Below are positions 1,794 to 30,118 of a stretch of DNA of 64,000 nucleotides, one piece after another. The position numbers and the translations under genes were made by a program. Position 1 is the stretch's first letter; each line of letters starts with the position of its first letter. The stretch is from Williamsia limnetica (GTDB taxonomy: Bacteria; Actinomycetota; Actinomycetes; Mycobacteriales; Mycobacteriaceae): contig NZ_QJSP01000007.1 of the NCBI RefSeq assembly GCF_003217475.1, positions 124,001 through 188,000 of the forward strand, given 5' to 3'. The notes below the pieces were generated by a model. It saw only the letters and a program-made list of their open reading frames with translations, did no database searches and was not told the DNA's origin.

Positions 1794-3335
1794 GTGGTCG
1801 AGAGACAGTCGCAACTACAGCGCGCATGGCACTTGTTGCGCTGGCTGGTGCGCACTCCATGGCCGGTACTGGCTCTGGACATGCTCCGCGCGAACGTGGC
1901 CGGGGCGCTCTTCACCTTCGCCTTCCTCCGTTTCGGCCTGCCCGCGCAGACTTCGGTCAGCCTGTCGGAGATCAGCGGGGTCGGACAGCTCATCTTCGTG
2001 CTGTACCTGATCATCGCAGGCATCGTGAGCGCTTACGCCACCATCCGGCTCTCGCTACCGGTGCTGGTCTGGCATCGCCGACGATCACGCCTGGACAACG
2101 AGAGCGCGCGGCGCCGGGCCCTGAGATTGCCGCTGCTGCTGATGATCGTCCACGGCGCCCTCTGGCTGGTCGGCGGCGCAGTGTTCTCGCTGTTGAGCCT
2201 GTCCCAGTCGGGCCGTACCGCCCTGGTCGTCGCGCTGGGATCGTTCGTCGGCGCGCTCGTGACGTCCGTCCTCGGGTACATGCAGTCCGAGAAGGTGCTG
2301 CGGCCGATCACGGTGGCGGCGATGGCCAACAATCCGGAGGACGCGACCGCACCCAGCGTCACCCAACGCATCATCCTGTTCTGGGTGATCAGCGTGGCCG
2401 CGCCGCTGGCCGTGATCATCGCCCTGGTCGTCGGGCAGCAGATCGGCGTCATCGACACAGATGCCGCCGGACTACAGCGCCCCATCCTGTGGATGGCGGG
2501 TGCTGCGTTGGCGTTCGGATCGATCGGGCTGATCCGGTTGGTCTCGGCCATCGCCGATCCCATCAAACAACTCCGGCTGGCGCAGCACGAGGTGCGCGAG
2601 GGCAACCTCGACACCTCCGTCCGCATCTACGACGGCAGTGATCTGGGCCTGCTGCAGGCCGGGTTCAACGAGATGGTCGCCGACGTGCGCGAACGTCAAC
2701 AGCTGCGCAACCTGTTCGGCCGCTATGTGGGTGAGGACGTGGCCCGTCGAGCCATCGAGATCGGCACCGAACTCGGCGGTGAGGAACGCTACGTCGGGGT
2801 GCTGTTCGTCGACATCGTCGGCTCGACACGCCTCGCCGTCAACCGACCGCCGCGCGACGTGGTGAACCTGCTCAACGAGTTCTTCCGGGTGATCGTCGAC
2901 GTGGTCGGCAGGCACGGCGGCTTCGTCAACAAGTTCCAGGGCGACGCGGCGCTCGCCATCTTCGGTGCCCCACTCGACCAGAAGGACTTCGCGGGGCAGG
3001 CCCTCGCCGCCGCGCGAACGCTGCGTCAAGAACTCGACGCCGCACTCGGCGACACCGACGTCGGCATCGGGGTATCGGCGGGCAAGGCCATCGCCGGCCA
3101 TATCGGGTCGCAACAGCGCCTCGAATACACCGTCATCGGCGACCCGGTCAACGAGGCGGCCCGGCTGACCGACCTGGCCAAGTTCGAGCCGAGCCGCGTG
3201 CTCGGATCGGCCCGCGCGGTGTACCTGGCATCATCCGAAGAAGCTGCGCACTGGGACATCGGTGAAGGCATCGAGCTACGGGGCCGGGGCATCGAGACCC
3301 GACTGGCCAGACCGAACTACGAGGTCGAGGTCTGA
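1794..3335 (+). CDS. membrane class III adenylate cyclase with HAMP domain
   Basis: It makes cAMP from ATP at the inner face of the membrane. About six hydrophobic segments fill the first 250 residues, followed by a HAMP segment (SAIADPIKQLRLAQHEVREG) and a C-terminal catalytic domain. Counted from the chosen start, the metal-binding aspartates are in FVDIVGST (about Asp340) and KFQGDAALAIFG (about Asp384, with adenine-selecting Lys380). IGDPVNEAARL supplies the second adenine-recognition Asp and the transition-state Asn and Arg. The frame is open back to TTG 1767. GTG 1794 is preferred because TACCGT at 1782-1787 sits six bases upstream, a good -10 for a leaderless message. It is the counterpart of M. 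tuberculosis Rv3645. With CRP encoded at 29444, the window holds both ends of a cAMP signalling path. Confidence 0.93.
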   Translation: MVERQSQLQRAWHLLRWLVRTPWPVLALDMLRANVAGALFTFAFLRFGLPAQTSVSLSEISGVGQLIFVLYLIIAGIVSAYATIRLSLPVLVWHRRRSRLDNESARRRALRLPLLLMIVHGALWLVGGAVFSLLSLSQSGRTALVVALGSFVGALVTSVLGYMQSEKVLRPITVAAMANNPEDATAPSVTQRIILFWVISVAAPLAVIIALVVGQQIGVIDTDAAGLQRPILWMAGAALAFGSIGLIRLVSAIADPIKQLRLAQHEVREGNLDTSVRIYDGSDLGLLQAGFNEMVADVRERQQLRNLFGRYVGEDVARRAIEIGTELGGEERYVGVLFVDIVGSTRLAVNRPPRDVVNLLNEFFRVIVDVVGRHGGFVNKFQGDAALAIFGAPLDQKDFAGQALAAARTLRQELDAALGDTDVGIGVSAGKAIAGHIGSQQRLEYTVIGDPVNEAARLTDLAKFEPSRVLGSARAVYLASSEEAAHWDIGEGIELRGRGIETRLARPNYEVEV

Positions 3336-17794: not shown

Positions 17795-17889
17795 AATGGG
17801 GACGACCCTGGCCAGGGGGGGGAGGAGGCCAGGGTCGTCGCGTTCAGCCCCGGGGGGTCGGGCTGAAAGCCCCGGATCAAGTCCGGGTA
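17795..17889 (-). ncRNA. 6C small RNA (C-rich hairpin loops)
   Basis: Read on the minus strand, three hairpins follow each other: TCCGGG/CCCGGA style arms at 17882-17887 and 17871-17876; TTCAGCCC/GGGCTGAA with a loop containing six C (17843-17867); and a perfect 13-bp stem GACGACCCTGGCC/GGCCAGGGTCGTC with a loop containing eight C (17801-17839). Two stems whose loops hold runs of six or more C define the actinobacterial 6C RNA. The M. tuberculosis 6C/B11 RNA lies in the same interval, between Rv3660c (ssd) and Rv3661, on the same strand. The ends are approximate: 5' from the promoter, 3' just past the last stem. It is thought to act on GC-rich mRNAs through the C loops. Confidence 0.85.
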
Positions 17890-17901: not shown

Positions 17902-18037
17902 CACAAGTTTCTGGGATTGATTGCAACTTCAACCATTTGATTCTCTTCACCCAAACGCTGCGATCGTAGGTGAAGTTATCCAGCTCGCCACAGCCCGAAC
18001 CGGTGCCCCACACGGTGGCCCGACGTACCCTCGACTG

Positions 18038-18874
18038 GTGACCGCATTCACGTCGGCAGACGGTGGAACGATGCCCTCAGGTTCGACGCGAATCGCCGCG
18101 TTCTTCGATCTCGACAAGACCATCATCGCCAAATCGAGCTCCCTCGCATTCTCGCGACCATTCTTCGATCAGGGGCTGATCAATCGTCGCTCCGTCCTCA
18201 AATCGTCGTATGCGCAGTTCATGTTCCTGCTGTCGGCGGCCGACCATGACCAGGTCGAGCGCATGCGCAAACACGTGACCGAGATGTGTACGGGTTGGGA
18301 CGTCGAGCAGGTGTCGTCGATCGTGCACGAAACGCTCCACGACATCGTCGATCCCCTGGTGTTCGCCGAAGCCGCGGACCTGATCGCCGGCCACAAGGCG
18401 CGCGGGCACGACGTGGTCATCGTGTCGGCGTCGGGCACGGAAATCGTCGAACCGATCGGCAAGATGCTCGGGGCCGACTATTCGATGGCCAGCCGGATGA
18501 AGGTCGTCGACGGAAAGTACGCGGGCGAGGTGGAGTTCTACTGCTACGGCGAGGAGAAGGTGGTCGCGATGAACGAGATCGCGGCGTCGGTCGGCTACGA
18601 CCTCACGAAGTGCTTCGCCTACTCCGACTCGATCACCGATCTGCCCATGCTGCGCGCCGTCGGGCATCCGACCGTGATCAACCCCGATCGTGCCCTGCGC
18701 AAAGAAGCGTCCACGCAGGGGTGGCCCATGCTCTCGTTCACCAAGCCGATATCACTACGCAGCCGGCTGCCTGCGGCAACGCCCGCGACCGTGACGGCCT
18801 CGGCCGCAGTGGGTGTGGGCGCAGTCATCGCGGGCGCCTTGACCTACACGGCATTGCACCGCCGGCGGCGCTGA
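18038..18874 (+). CDS. HAD-superfamily (SerB-like, IB type) phosphatase with C-terminal membrane anchor
   Basis: A predicted phosphomonoesterase, counterpart of Rv3661. HAD motif I is FFDLDKT with nucleophile Asp, motif II VIVSASG, a lysine in the KVV segment, and motif IV AYSDSITDLPML. A cap domain of mostly helices lies between I and II (residues about 40-140). The last 30 residues contain a hydrophobic helix (TASAAVGVGAVIAGALTYTAL) and an Arg-rich end, suggesting a tail anchor. GTG 18038 gives 278 residues and ATG 18071 is an alternative; the frame remains open to 17921 without support. The substrate is unknown, despite older labels as a phosphoserine phosphatase or inhibition protein. Confidence 0.88.
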   Translation: MTAFTSADGGTMPSGSTRIAAFFDLDKTIIAKSSSLAFSRPFFDQGLINRRSVLKSSYAQFMFLLSAADHDQVERMRKHVTEMCTGWDVEQVSSIVHETLHDIVDPLVFAEAADLIAGHKARGHDVVIVSASGTEIVEPIGKMLGADYSMASRMKVVDGKYAGEVEFYCYGEEKVVAMNEIAASVGYDLTKCFAYSDSITDLPMLRAVGHPTVINPDRALRKEASTQGWPMLSFTKPISLRSRLPAATPATVTASAAVGVGAVIAGALTYTALHRRRR

Positions 18875-18967
18875 CCACCTTCGATCAGCCACGCGGACGT
18901 CGACGCGAAAAACGTTTTCGCCCAATGGAAAAGGGCCGATTCAAATTTGAGACCGTTGACCCCTTGA

Positions 18968-18983
18968 TGTGACCGTGGTCACG
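18968..18983. promoter_or_regulatory. near-consensus CRP binding site
   Basis: TGTGACCGTGGTCACG matches the mycobacterial CRP consensus TGTGA-N6-TCACA at all but the last base. Inside it, GTGACC/GGTCAC is a perfect palindrome. The site overlaps the promoter proposed for the downstream non-coding RNA. CRP itself is encoded at 29444-30118. Confidence 0.7.
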
Positions 18984-18998
18984 GTGTAGAAAGTAGTT

Positions 18999-19300
18999 AC
19001 GGAACGCGCGGGAAGCCAAGTTCGGATCGGAAGAGAAGATACGGACTCCTGACCACGCACTCCCAGCACGGATATCGAGCACCCACGCGCAGCACGCCGC
19101 GGGAGGCACCAGGTTGTGGGCCTGCGAGATTCGGCGTCGTATTCAGATGAGTTCCTTTGGGTGGGAACGCTTTTGAGGCGGCGGCGGACAACTCTGCCTA
19201 GGTCACCCCACACAACCACCACAGCACGCTTGGTAACTCGGATCCGTGCTAGCGGGCGGCCGACGGGAATCGCACAGCGACCCGGAGGCCGCCCGCAGTG
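18999..19300 (+). ncRNA. Ms1/MTS2823-like RNA (RNA polymerase-binding small RNA), predicted
   Basis: The 512-base convergent gap between the HAD hydrolase and the Fic-like gene has no convincing reading frame. It is the slot in which mycobacteria encode MTS2823 (M. tuberculosis) or Ms1 (M. smegmatis), an abundant RNA of about 300 nt that binds core RNA polymerase. TTGATG (18964-18969) and TAGAAA (18987-18992), 17 bases apart, are a possible promoter. The CRP site lies between them. A 10-bp stem GCGGGCGGCC/GGCCGCCCGC (19252-19261 with 19287-19296) could be the end, giving about 300 nt. A long-range GGTTGTG/CACAACC pair (19112, 19211) fits an extended fold. Primary sequence homology was not checked, so the limits are approximate. 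Confidence 0.5.
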
Positions 19301-19350
19301 CGTTGTCCGCCCCCTATGTATACCTGCCACAGCAGGTTTCGCTTCTCGGT

Positions 19351-19400
19351 GACCTACCGAGCTCGAGGACCTACGGAGCTCGGGACTTACCGAGCTCGGG
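19351..19400. repeat. three imperfect tandem copies of a 17-bp SacI-site repeat
   Basis: The units GACCTACCGAGCTCGAG, GACCTACGGAGCTCGG and GACTTACCGAGCTCGGG lie head to tail at 19351-19400. Each holds the palindrome GAGCTC. The third copy crosses the stop of the leftward Fic-like gene (19387). The function is unknown; the array is downstream of both convergent genes. Confidence 0.85.
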
Positions 19401-20139
19401 CGGCTTCCGCGATGGATCTCGCCTCGGCCGCACCGGCTTCCAATGCCTCACTGCTCAGCACCAACCAACCGCGGATGCCCTCGGGATCGCCGGTCCCGAA
19501 AGCCGTCGACAGCTCGCGGTATTGCTGCACCCGCTTGAACCAGGTCACCTCGGGTACGCCGAGGTTGTGTGGATCGAGTCCGGTACTCGCGCACACCAGC
19601 CGCGAGGCCGCGCGGGCCACCACCCCATTTGCATGGACGAAGGGCTCGAGTGCGAGCAGTTCCGCGTGCACCACAGCGGCCAGAACCGGCGCGGGCGCCT
19701 TCGTCGCGCCGGTGACGAGTTGCGCGAGCAGGGCCAGGCGTTGGTCGAGTTCGCGATCGGCTCGCGGTCGACCCAGCAGTTCAGGGTCATCGGTCAATTC
19801 GTTGGCCGCCAGCACGTGTAACCGGGCCAGCGCCTGCAGGGGCGCCCTGGTCCACACGGCCAGCAACTGCGGCAACGACTCCCCGTCCAGCGCCTGCGCC
19901 ACCCGCATCGCCCCCGACAGGATCGGTTCGTCGAAGTCCCCGTCCCGGACCAGCTCGATGCTGCCACCGTCGATGGCGGCGGACGACCGACCGGCCCGCC
20001 ACGACGCCTCGGTGGCAGTCTTGTCCCAGCCCCGAAGATTCGCGGGGTGCCGGTGGGCGGCCGCCAGTGCGTCACGCGCCCGGTCTGCCGCCTCGAGTAC
20101 GCCGGGCATCTCGAGCAACGGCGCCAAAGGATCAGTCAC
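19387..20139 (-). CDS. degenerate Fic-fold protein (Rv3662c-like)
   Basis: This 250-residue, largely helical protein is of unknown function. Residues 165-176 read EPFVHANGVVAR, which aligns with the Fic active-site motif HPFxxGNGRxxR. The catalytic His is replaced by Glu, Asp/Glu by His, the first Gly by Ala and the Arg by Val, while Pro-Phe, Asn-Gly and the last Arg remain. At 52-58, SSAAIDG resembles the inhibitory helix motif (S/T)xxxE(G/N) with Asp for Glu. The arrangement, inhibitory helix before the Fic core, is that of class II Fic proteins. AMP transfer by the usual mechanism is unlikely without the His, so a binding or regulatory role is inferred. The fold assignment is mine and needs a structural check. 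Confidence 0.65.
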   Translation of the reverse strand: MTDPLAPLLEMPGVLEAADRARDALAAAHRHPANLRGWDKTATEASWRAGRSSAAIDGGSIELVRDGDFDEPILSGAMRVAQALDGESLPQLLAVWTRAPLQALARLHVLAANELTDDPELLGRPRADRELDQRLALLAQLVTGATKAPAPVLAAVVHAELLALEPFVHANGVVARAASRLVCASTGLDPHNLGVPEVTWFKRVQQYRELSTAFGTGDPEGIRGWLVLSSEALEAGAAEARSIAEAARAR

Positions 20140-29443: not shown

Positions 29444-30118
29444 GTGGAAGAAGTACTGGCGCGGGCGGGCATATTTCAAGGAGTTGAGCCCACCGCCGTC
29501 GCGGCACTGACCAATCAGCTTCAGCCGGTTGATTTTCCACGCGGACACATCATCTTCAATGAGGGCGAGCCCGGAGATCGGCTCTACATCATCCTCTCGG
29601 GCAAGGTGAAAGTCGGCCGCAAGTCCGTTGACGGCCGCGAAAATCTGCTGACGATCATGGGCCCGTCCGACATGTTCGGCGAGTTGTCCATCTTCGATCC
29701 CGGCCCCCGTACCTCGTCGGCGACCACGGTCACCGAGGTTCGCGCGGTGTCGATGGACCGTGAAGCACTCCGGTCCTGGATCGCCGACCGTCCCGAGATC
29801 GCCGAGCAGCTGCTGCGCGTGTTGGCTCGTCGCCTGCGCCGCACCAACAACAACCTCGCCGACCTGATCTTCACCGACGTGCCCGGACGTGTGGCCAAGC
29901 AGCTCTTGCAACTGGCGCAGCGGTTCGGAACGCAAGAAGCAGGCGCGCTCCGCGTCACCCACGACCTGACGCAGGAAGAAATCGCTCAGCTCGTCGGTGC
30001 TTCACGTGAAACCGTCAACAAGGCGCTGGCCGATTTCGCCCAGCGCGGCTGGTTGCGACTCGAAGGCAAGAGCGTACTGATCGCGGACTCCGAGCGTCTG
30101 GCTCGCCGAGCTCGCTGA
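29444..30118 (+). CDS. crp: cAMP receptor protein CRP
   Basis: This 224-residue dimeric transcription factor has the same length as M. tuberculosis CRP (Rv3676). The cyclic-nucleotide pocket has Glu80 in FGELSIF and Arg89-Thr90-Ser91 in [10 protein letters not shown] long dimer helix ([16 protein letters not shown]) leads to a C-terminal winged helix-turn-helix ([21 protein letters not shown]). GTG 29444 follows AAAGGGG. TAGACT about 90 bases upstream is a possible -10. A probable target site lies at 18968. Confidence 0.96.

What the first reader, a model, noticed from the sequence alone, without database searches (positions are those of the whole stretch)
18964..19300. Ms1/MTS2823-like RNA under a CRP site
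A gene-free convergent gap in the MTS2823/Ms1 position contains a possible promoter (TTGATG, TAGAAA), a near-perfect CRP palindrome overlapping it, and a terminal hairpin 298 nt later. This would place an RNA polymerase-binding RNA under cAMP control in this genus. If it overlaps the core promoter, CRP would repress rather than activate it.
Basis: partly seen in the sequence, partly recalled or inferred. Interest (0 to 1): 0.7.

Follow-up and report, generated by a model that had tools for sequence, protein, structure and literature searches.

The report
Ms1 RNA with CRP site in promoter
This gap encodes the known RNA-polymerase-binding RNA called Ms1, and its promoter carries a binding-site sequence for the cAMP-responsive regulator CRP that has been kept in the same place in many related bacteria, which suggests what may switch this RNA on and off.

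Summary
Rfam's Ms1 model matches 18999-19304 (+) end to end (134.5 bits, E 3.8e-35; curated cut-off 162, not reached). The upstream HAD hydrolase matches known Ms1 loci. The host is a Williamsia relative; Ms1 in Williamsia was already predicted in print, so the RNA itself is not new.

The CRP palindrome is the interesting part. TGTGACCGTGGTCACG (18968-18983) lies between -35 and -10, centred at -23.5. GTGA-N6-TCAC sits in this register in 9 of 9 genomes of the genus. Of 77 named relatives 35 are intact and 11 one letter off, from Williamsia to Amycolatopsis. No other register matches in those 86 promoters. A strict promoter-plus-dyad pattern hits 153 of 401 family genomes; its mirror control hits none. 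One clade of mycobacteria and some other genera lost the dyad but kept promoter and RNA. A CRP about 91% identical to solved mycobacterial CRP is encoded 10 kb away.

Best reading: CRP bound over the core promoter holds Ms1 down, and release allows its stationary-phase rise. Binding, direction and cAMP dependence are untested. My searches found no paper joining CRP to the Ms1 promoter, but the 2019 Ms1 promoter paper was not readable.

The parts
18071..18874 (+). HAD-family hydrolase, upstream neighbour of Ms1
   Evidence: ORF 17921-18874, conserved part from the ATG at 18071; Pfam HAD PF12710, 117.8 bits
18964..18969 (+). -35 element TTGATG
   Evidence: sequence and 17-nt spacing; relatives were anchored on TTG, so its invariance is by construction
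18968..18983 (.). CRP-type dyad TGTGA-CCGTGG-TCACG inside the -35/-10 spacer, centre at -23.5
18987..18992 (+). -10 element TAGAAA
   Evidence: sequence; T, A and the three last A columns 1.7-2.0 bits in 20 non-redundant promoters
18999..19304 (+). Ms1 RNA (RF02566), A18999 inferred as +1
   Evidence: Infernal match to model positions 1-304, 134.5 bits, E 3.8e-35
19252..19296 (+). 3' terminal hairpin (terminator-like, no U-run)
   Evidence: sequence and fold; relatives of the genus printed
19387..20139 (-). convergent downstream gene, weakly Fic-like
   Evidence: ORF; Pfam Fic 20.3 bits, under the cut-off of 24
29444..30118 (+). CRP orthologue, the proposed ligand of the dyad
   Evidence: cNMP_binding and HTH_Crp_2 over cut-off; phmmer end to end with solved mycobacterial CRP 3h3u, 447 bits
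2790..3287 (+). adenylate/guanylate cyclase domain (one of six in the genome)
   Evidence: PF00211 at G000:C7:126790-127287

Best explanation
The interval is the Ms1 locus of a Williamsia species. A sigma-A-type promoter (TTGATG-17-TAGAAA) drives a roughly 300-nt structured RNA of the Ms1 family, which in mycobacteria and Streptomyces binds core RNA polymerase without the primary sigma factor. A CRP dyad fills the space between -35 and -10, so a CRP dimer and RNA polymerase could hardly bind together. CRP is therefore most likely a repressor of Ms1: bound during growth, it keeps the RNA low; loss of occupancy on entry to stationary phase (less cAMP, less CRP or competition) lets Ms1 rise. Shown here: RNA family, promoter anatomy, deep conservation of the dyad in one register, presence of a matching CRP. 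Inferred: that CRP is the binder, that it represses, that cAMP modulates it, and that the RNA binds polymerase in this genus.
For: Ms1 match full length, one copy in the genome, 9/9 in the genus, 337/401 in the family. Dyad intact in 9/9 genus genomes; in 77 named promoters 35 intact, 11 one letter off, 31 two or more off. In these 86 promoters 55 have 7 or 8 of the 8 arm letters at the one register and 0 at each of 45 others. In 20 non-redundant promoters the right-arm letters CAC carry 1.7 bits each, like the last two letters of the -10, against 0.4-1.1 for the other spacer letters (9-14, 19-21) and 0.1-0.3 for ten upstream positions; four promoters of the lost type were left out of this set by their right arm, and with them two of the three letters fall to 1.1. 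Strict promoter-dyad pattern: 153/401 family genomes, 13/31 genera, mirror control 0 in the rows; in the class sample 9/178, all nine among 13 family members. In Pseudonocardiales-type loci the Ms1 model (E 1e-6 to 2e-16) starts 34-36 nt after the TTG of the dyad promoter in 9 of 11 loci tested, 7 of them with an intact dyad. CRP in the same window, about 91% identical to M. tuberculosis CRP by count on the printed alignment, recognition-helix stretch identical. Published: mycobacterial CRP consensus TGTGA-N6-TCACA (passages of PMC4218801, PMC7739888); binding near the start site goes with repression in M. tuberculosis (PMC4117774, abstract and Results part 1); M. smegmatis crp2, whose start site a CRP site overlaps, rises 3.4- to 4.1-fold without Crp1 (passages of PMC7739888).
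Against: No transcript, binding or reporter data were available for this organism. The dyad is missing where Ms1 persists (31 of 77 named; 36 of 60 fetched promoters, 59 of them chosen for lacking the strict pattern, have neither arm complete), so it is not essential to the RNA. CRP of M. tuberculosis was proposed to gain only about 2-fold in DNA affinity from cAMP (passage in PMC4218801), so 'cAMP control' may be weak. The M. tuberculosis CRP ChIP-seq paper names three sRNAs with CRP sites upstream and has 0 mentions of MTS2823 in its main text. No data on CRP or cAMP levels in stationary phase were read. Extra symmetry in the central six letters is not above shuffles.
Confidence: 0.62

Rival explanations
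1. CRP binds the dyad but activates Ms1, for example by contacting sigma-A or bending the spacer.
For: M. smegmatis Crp1 is reported to interact with sigma-A (passage of PMC12709188).
Against: The centre at -23.5 lies inside the core promoter; the activating sites I read of lie upstream (-58 to -101 at cydA, -81.5 at ahpC). The spacer is already 17 nt.
Confidence: 0.12
2. Another dyad-binding regulator with a GTGA-N6-TCAC-like preference, not the CRP orthologue, is the ligand.
For: The outer letters vary (TGTGA...TCACG, TGTGA...TCACA, AGTGA...TCACT), and one Rhodococcus has GTGG...CCAC (L072). Regulators of other DNA-binding families were not surveyed.
Against: Of 14 HTH_Crp_2 matches in the genome three reach the cut-off; the CRP gene scores 65 bits, the next two 31 and 27, and the 243-aa ORF at the 31-bit match looks DtxR/MntR-like by eye.
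Confidence: 0.13
3. The dyad is an incidental by-product of promoter conservation, with no regulator.
For: The left arm touches the -35 element, and all sequences are related.
Against: The right arm lies in the spacer and is conserved while its neighbours vary. It is lost in several lineages with -35, -10 and RNA kept, and in one promoter the intact dyad sits 1 nt off the usual register while the -35/-10 distance is unchanged (L154).
Confidence: 0.05
4. The RNA is an Ms1 homologue that no longer binds polymerase in Williamsia.
For: Scores are below the Rfam cut-off in 9 of 9 genus genomes.
Against: The match covers positions 1-304 and relatives show compensatory changes; Streptomyces Ms1, found by structure similarity plus synteny, still binds the core (abstract of PMC9130861).
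Confidence: 0.08

Closest known systems
Ms1 RNA of Mycobacterium smegmatis / MTS2823 of M. tuberculosis (RF02566)
   Same: Full-length covariance match, HAD hydrolase upstream, about 300 nt, promoter directly before it
   Different: 62% identical over aligned positions to the Ms1 of a Mycolicibacterium (L095); below the Rfam cut-off; no expression data
Ms1 candidates of Williamsia (Vankova Hausnerova et al. 2022, PMC9130861; abstract and passages seen)
   Same: Same genus and synteny; the RNA prediction is theirs
   Different: The main text has 0 occurrences of CRP or cAMP
CRP-repressed mycobacterial promoters (frdA of M. tuberculosis, crp2 of M. smegmatis)
   Same: CRP site in a repressive position
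   Different: There the site overlaps the start (frdA +4.5); here it is in the -35/-10 spacer, and the target is a polymerase-binding RNA
MTS0997/Mcr11 (CRP-dependent sRNA of M. tuberculosis; the name Mcr11 is recalled)
   Same: An sRNA linked to CRP
   Different: Putative CRP site 107 bp upstream, expression reduced without CRP (passage of PMC3207917)

Membership tests
Ms1 RNA (RF02566) | Match to sequence-structure model | tested here: met
   E 3.8e-35, positions 1-304
Ms1 RNA (RF02566) | Curated gathering score reached | tested here: not met
   134.5 of 162; 0 of 9 genus genomes reach it, although all match at E 1.5e-31 or better; 95 of 401 in the family do. The cut-off is a curation threshold and I do not take failing it as exclusion
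Ms1 RNA (RF02566) | Synteny with HAD hydrolase upstream | tested here: met
Ms1 RNA (RF02566) | Base pairs supported by compensatory change among relatives | tested here: met
   33 of 81 RNAalifold pairs, 18 sequences, 91% of cells paired; the structure was predicted on the same alignment and no control was run
Ms1 RNA (RF02566) | Binds sigma-free core RNA polymerase; abundant in stationary phase | not testable with these tools
   needs RIP and RNA-seq
CRP operator | Dyad TGTGA-N6-TCACA | tested here: met
   9 of 10 letters; G instead of the last A
CRP operator | Conserved in register among relatives | tested here: met
   lost in some lineages
CRP operator | Cognate CRP in the genome | tested here: met
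CRP operator | Binding and regulation in vivo | not testable with these tools
   needs EMSA, ChIP, reporter

The most novel reading that the evidence does not exclude
Ms1 is the RNA arm of an ancestral CRP switch: across the GTDB family Mycobacteriaceae and into Pseudonocardiaceae CRP sits on the Ms1 core promoter and ties the store of sigma-free RNA polymerase to the CRP/cAMP state of the cell. A derived clade of mycobacteria lost the right half-site once, and several other genera lost the dyad separately, leaving the RNA free of this brake. This could underlie the very high exponential-phase level reported for MTS2823 compared with the 130-fold induction of Ms1 in M. smegmatis.
Probability: 0.42. 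Interest if true: 0.8.

Novelty: new member of a known kind. Interest (0 to 1): 0.62.

Why it matters
What controls the about 130-fold stationary-phase rise of Ms1 was left open by its discoverers in 2014 (PMC4191392, section 24 read). A deeply conserved operator on the core promoter names a candidate regulator and predicts which lineages should show the control and which should not. It would link the pool of free RNA polymerase to a second-messenger regulator.

Tried and rejected
Default Rfam scan of the window showed no Ms1; the E-value scan of the interval did. A first dyad regex had the wrong spacing and returned nothing useful; corrected. Extra symmetry in the central six letters: not above shuffles (703 of 5000 on 40 distinct cores; 2469 of 5000 on 13 spread-out cores), so I claim none; the outer pair exceeded shuffles on the 40 cores (1 of 5000) but not on the 13 (491 of 5000). 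A second CRP-like site at 18037-18052 near the 6C RNA is intact only in the window's own genome among 13 loci; four others have it one letter off; not pursued. Attempt to read the M. tuberculosis promoter: I searched 12 genomes picked by size with the Ms1 model, hoping for the published coordinate; none fitted, so the dyad in M. tuberculosis, and by name in M. smegmatis, stays untested. Of those 12, 11 promoters could be read: 6 intact, 4 one letter off, 1 lost.

Rows dropped: of 80 named loci three gave no usable Ms1 start (L107, L109, L115); L112 was first placed by the dyad motif itself and later confirmed by the Ms1 model; L108 has the dyad promoter but no Ms1 match at E <= 1, L115 neither; L079 was mis-anchored, left out, and re-anchored (lost either way). 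Of the 60 promoters were chosen among genomes without the strict pattern, so they are biased against the dyad; G083 has it.

Full report
What is there. The + strand interval after the HAD hydrolase gene (18071-18874; Pfam HAD) and before a convergent, weakly Fic-like - strand gene (19387-20139) holds only mechanical ORFs, of which I tested one, without a Pfam match. The Rfam Ms1 model matches 18999-19304 over its whole length with E 3.8e-35. The score, 134.5 bits, is below the curated cut-off of 162, so the default scan lists only a 6C RNA and a tRNA in the window. The genome has one copy; 9 of 9 genomes of the genus have it, none over the cut-off; 337 of 401 genomes of the GTDB family have it at E <= 0.001 and 95 pass the cut-off (stricter filters, so 64 misses include false ones: G094 has no match there but carries the promoter pattern). 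Eighteen sequences share a predicted consensus fold with compensatory change at 33 of 81 pairs, and the window sequence folds 5 sd better than shuffles.

Which organism. The closest named HAD hydrolases are from Williamsia sp. 1135 (90%) and W. muralis (85%); one similar record (84%) is titled Kitasatospora, probably a mislabel. Ms1 in Williamsia was already predicted by the 2022 synteny study (passages of PMC9130861), so the RNA is not a new find.

The promoter. TTGATG (18964) and TAGAAA (18987) are 17 nt apart, and the Ms1 model begins at A18999. In M. smegmatis the mapped first nucleotide is likewise an A downstream of conserved -35/-10 hexamers (passage of PMC4191392). TGTGACCGTGGTCACG fills the spacer, centred at -23.5.

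Is the palindrome more than chance? The genome holds 39 TGTGA-N6-TCAC matches against 16 for the mirrored pattern; in the window near-matches are no more frequent than in shuffles. More telling is conservation in register. The pattern TTGMNGTGA-N6-TCACNNNGTANAAA occurs in 153 of 401 family genomes and 13 of 31 genera, and the mirrored control shows 0 in the rows. In the rows whose coordinates I compared by hand Ms1 starts 7 nt after it (G000, G349, G306, G022; G082: 17). In the class sample a slightly looser pattern hits 9 of 178 genomes, all nine among the 13 family members, none of the 165 others; it therefore says nothing for more distant Ms1 loci. In 86 promoters (9 genus, 77 of 80 named loci) 55 carry at least 7 of the 8 arm letters at this register and none at 45 other registers. 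By column, the right arm CAC has 1.7 bits against 0.4-1.1 in the rest of the spacer (20 non-redundant promoters; four of the lost type were set aside by their right arm, and with them the last two letters fall to 1.1).

Where it is kept and lost. Of 77 named promoters 35 are intact, 11 one letter off, 31 further off. Intact: 4 of 4 Williamsia, 3 of 3 Tsukamurella, 6 of 6 Amycolatopsis (AGTGA-N6-TCACT), 1 of 1 Prauserella, Saccharopolyspora and Antrihabitans, 9 of 19 Rhodococcus (6 one off, 4 lost). Among 11 Pseudonocardiales-type loci the Ms1 model matches in 9 (E 1e-6 to 2e-16), each time starting 34-36 nt after the TTG of the dyad promoter; L108 and L115 have no match. Of 32 loci assigned to Mycobacterium 27 are lost, 24 of these with TCAC changed to TCTA, with TTG and TANAAA kept. 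On a HAD protein tree of 115 rows the 33 'lost' rows need 3 changes, and 29 of them form one branch inside Mycobacterium (support 93, not starred; quick method). The lost form TCTAG occurs in 68 of 297 Mycobacterium genomes. Of 30 Mycobacterium-type loci taken by Ms1 score alone 25 are intact. Sixty further promoters, 59 picked among genomes without the strict pattern, show 13 intact and 36 with neither arm complete; by eye the rows of genus groups g13 (3), g24 (3) and g27 (8) have no dyad. So the dyad is old, widespread and dispensable for the RNA. That the lost species are mostly slow growers is my own knowledge.

The regulator. The window encodes a CRP at 29444-30118 that aligns end to end with solved mycobacterial CRP (447 bits, about 91% identical by count on the printed alignment). 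It is the best HTH_Crp_2 match in the genome (65 bits against 31). Six cyclase-domain matches are present, one at 2790-3287. Published mycobacterial CRP sites are TGTGA-N6-TCACA; CRP sites close to the start go with repression in M. tuberculosis (PMC4117774, abstract and Results part 1); M. smegmatis crp2 has a CRP site over its start and rises in a crp1 mutant (PMC7739888 passages). cAMP was proposed to raise DNA affinity of M. tuberculosis CRP only about two-fold (passage of PMC4218801).

Mechanism. A CRP dimer on 18968-18983 would cover DNA between the sigma contacts, so repression is the likeliest outcome (inferred). Ms1 rises about 130-fold in stationary M. smegmatis, and its regulator was left open (PMC4191392, section 24). 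MTS2823 in M. tuberculosis is already second only to rRNA in exponential phase and rises from 6748 to 43600 RPKM (PMC3207917 passages). If M. tuberculosis belongs to the lost type and M. smegmatis to the intact type, the difference would fit; I could verify neither promoter by name. After CarD depletion Ms1 was the most affected gene in stationary phase (PMC12709188 passage), so CRP would not be the only input.

Limits. All evidence is comparative sequence; no expression or binding data were used for this organism. The novelty statement covers the ten searches of the held library and not Sikova et al. 2019.

Noticed in passing
17797-17871 (-): 6C RNA (RF01066, 65.6 bits) just upstream of the HAD gene on the other strand; a 6C match is also listed in 9 of 11 Pseudonocardiales-type loci (one of them below the cut-off and cut by the locus end). 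The M. tuberculosis CRP ChIP-seq paper names ncRv13660c, which I take (recalled) to be the 6C/B11 RNA, as having a CRP site.
   Followed up: partly
18037-18052: A second dyad GGTGACCGCATTCACG upstream of the 6C RNA and in the extended HAD reading frame; intact in 1 of 13 loci.
   Followed up: yes
18999-19304 and loci L001-L009: Rfam's Ms1 gathering score (162) rejects all nine genus copies that match at E 1.5e-31 or better; 242 of 337 family genomes with a match fall under it, so annotation by that cut-off under-reports Ms1.
   Followed up: yes
L134-L148 and Mycobacterium genomes: The lost form is itself rather uniform (GGTCTAGTAGTACAAAGG), perhaps a new constraint in place of the CRP half-site.
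   Followed up: no
L154: A promoter of genus group g22 keeps the intact dyad 1 nt off the usual register while -35 and -10 stay 17 nt apart.
   Followed up: no
L042: Record titled Kitasatospora arboriphila NRRL B-24581 carries a Williamsia-type locus (HAD piece identical to that of a genus genome); probably a mislabelled or mixed genome.
   Followed up: no
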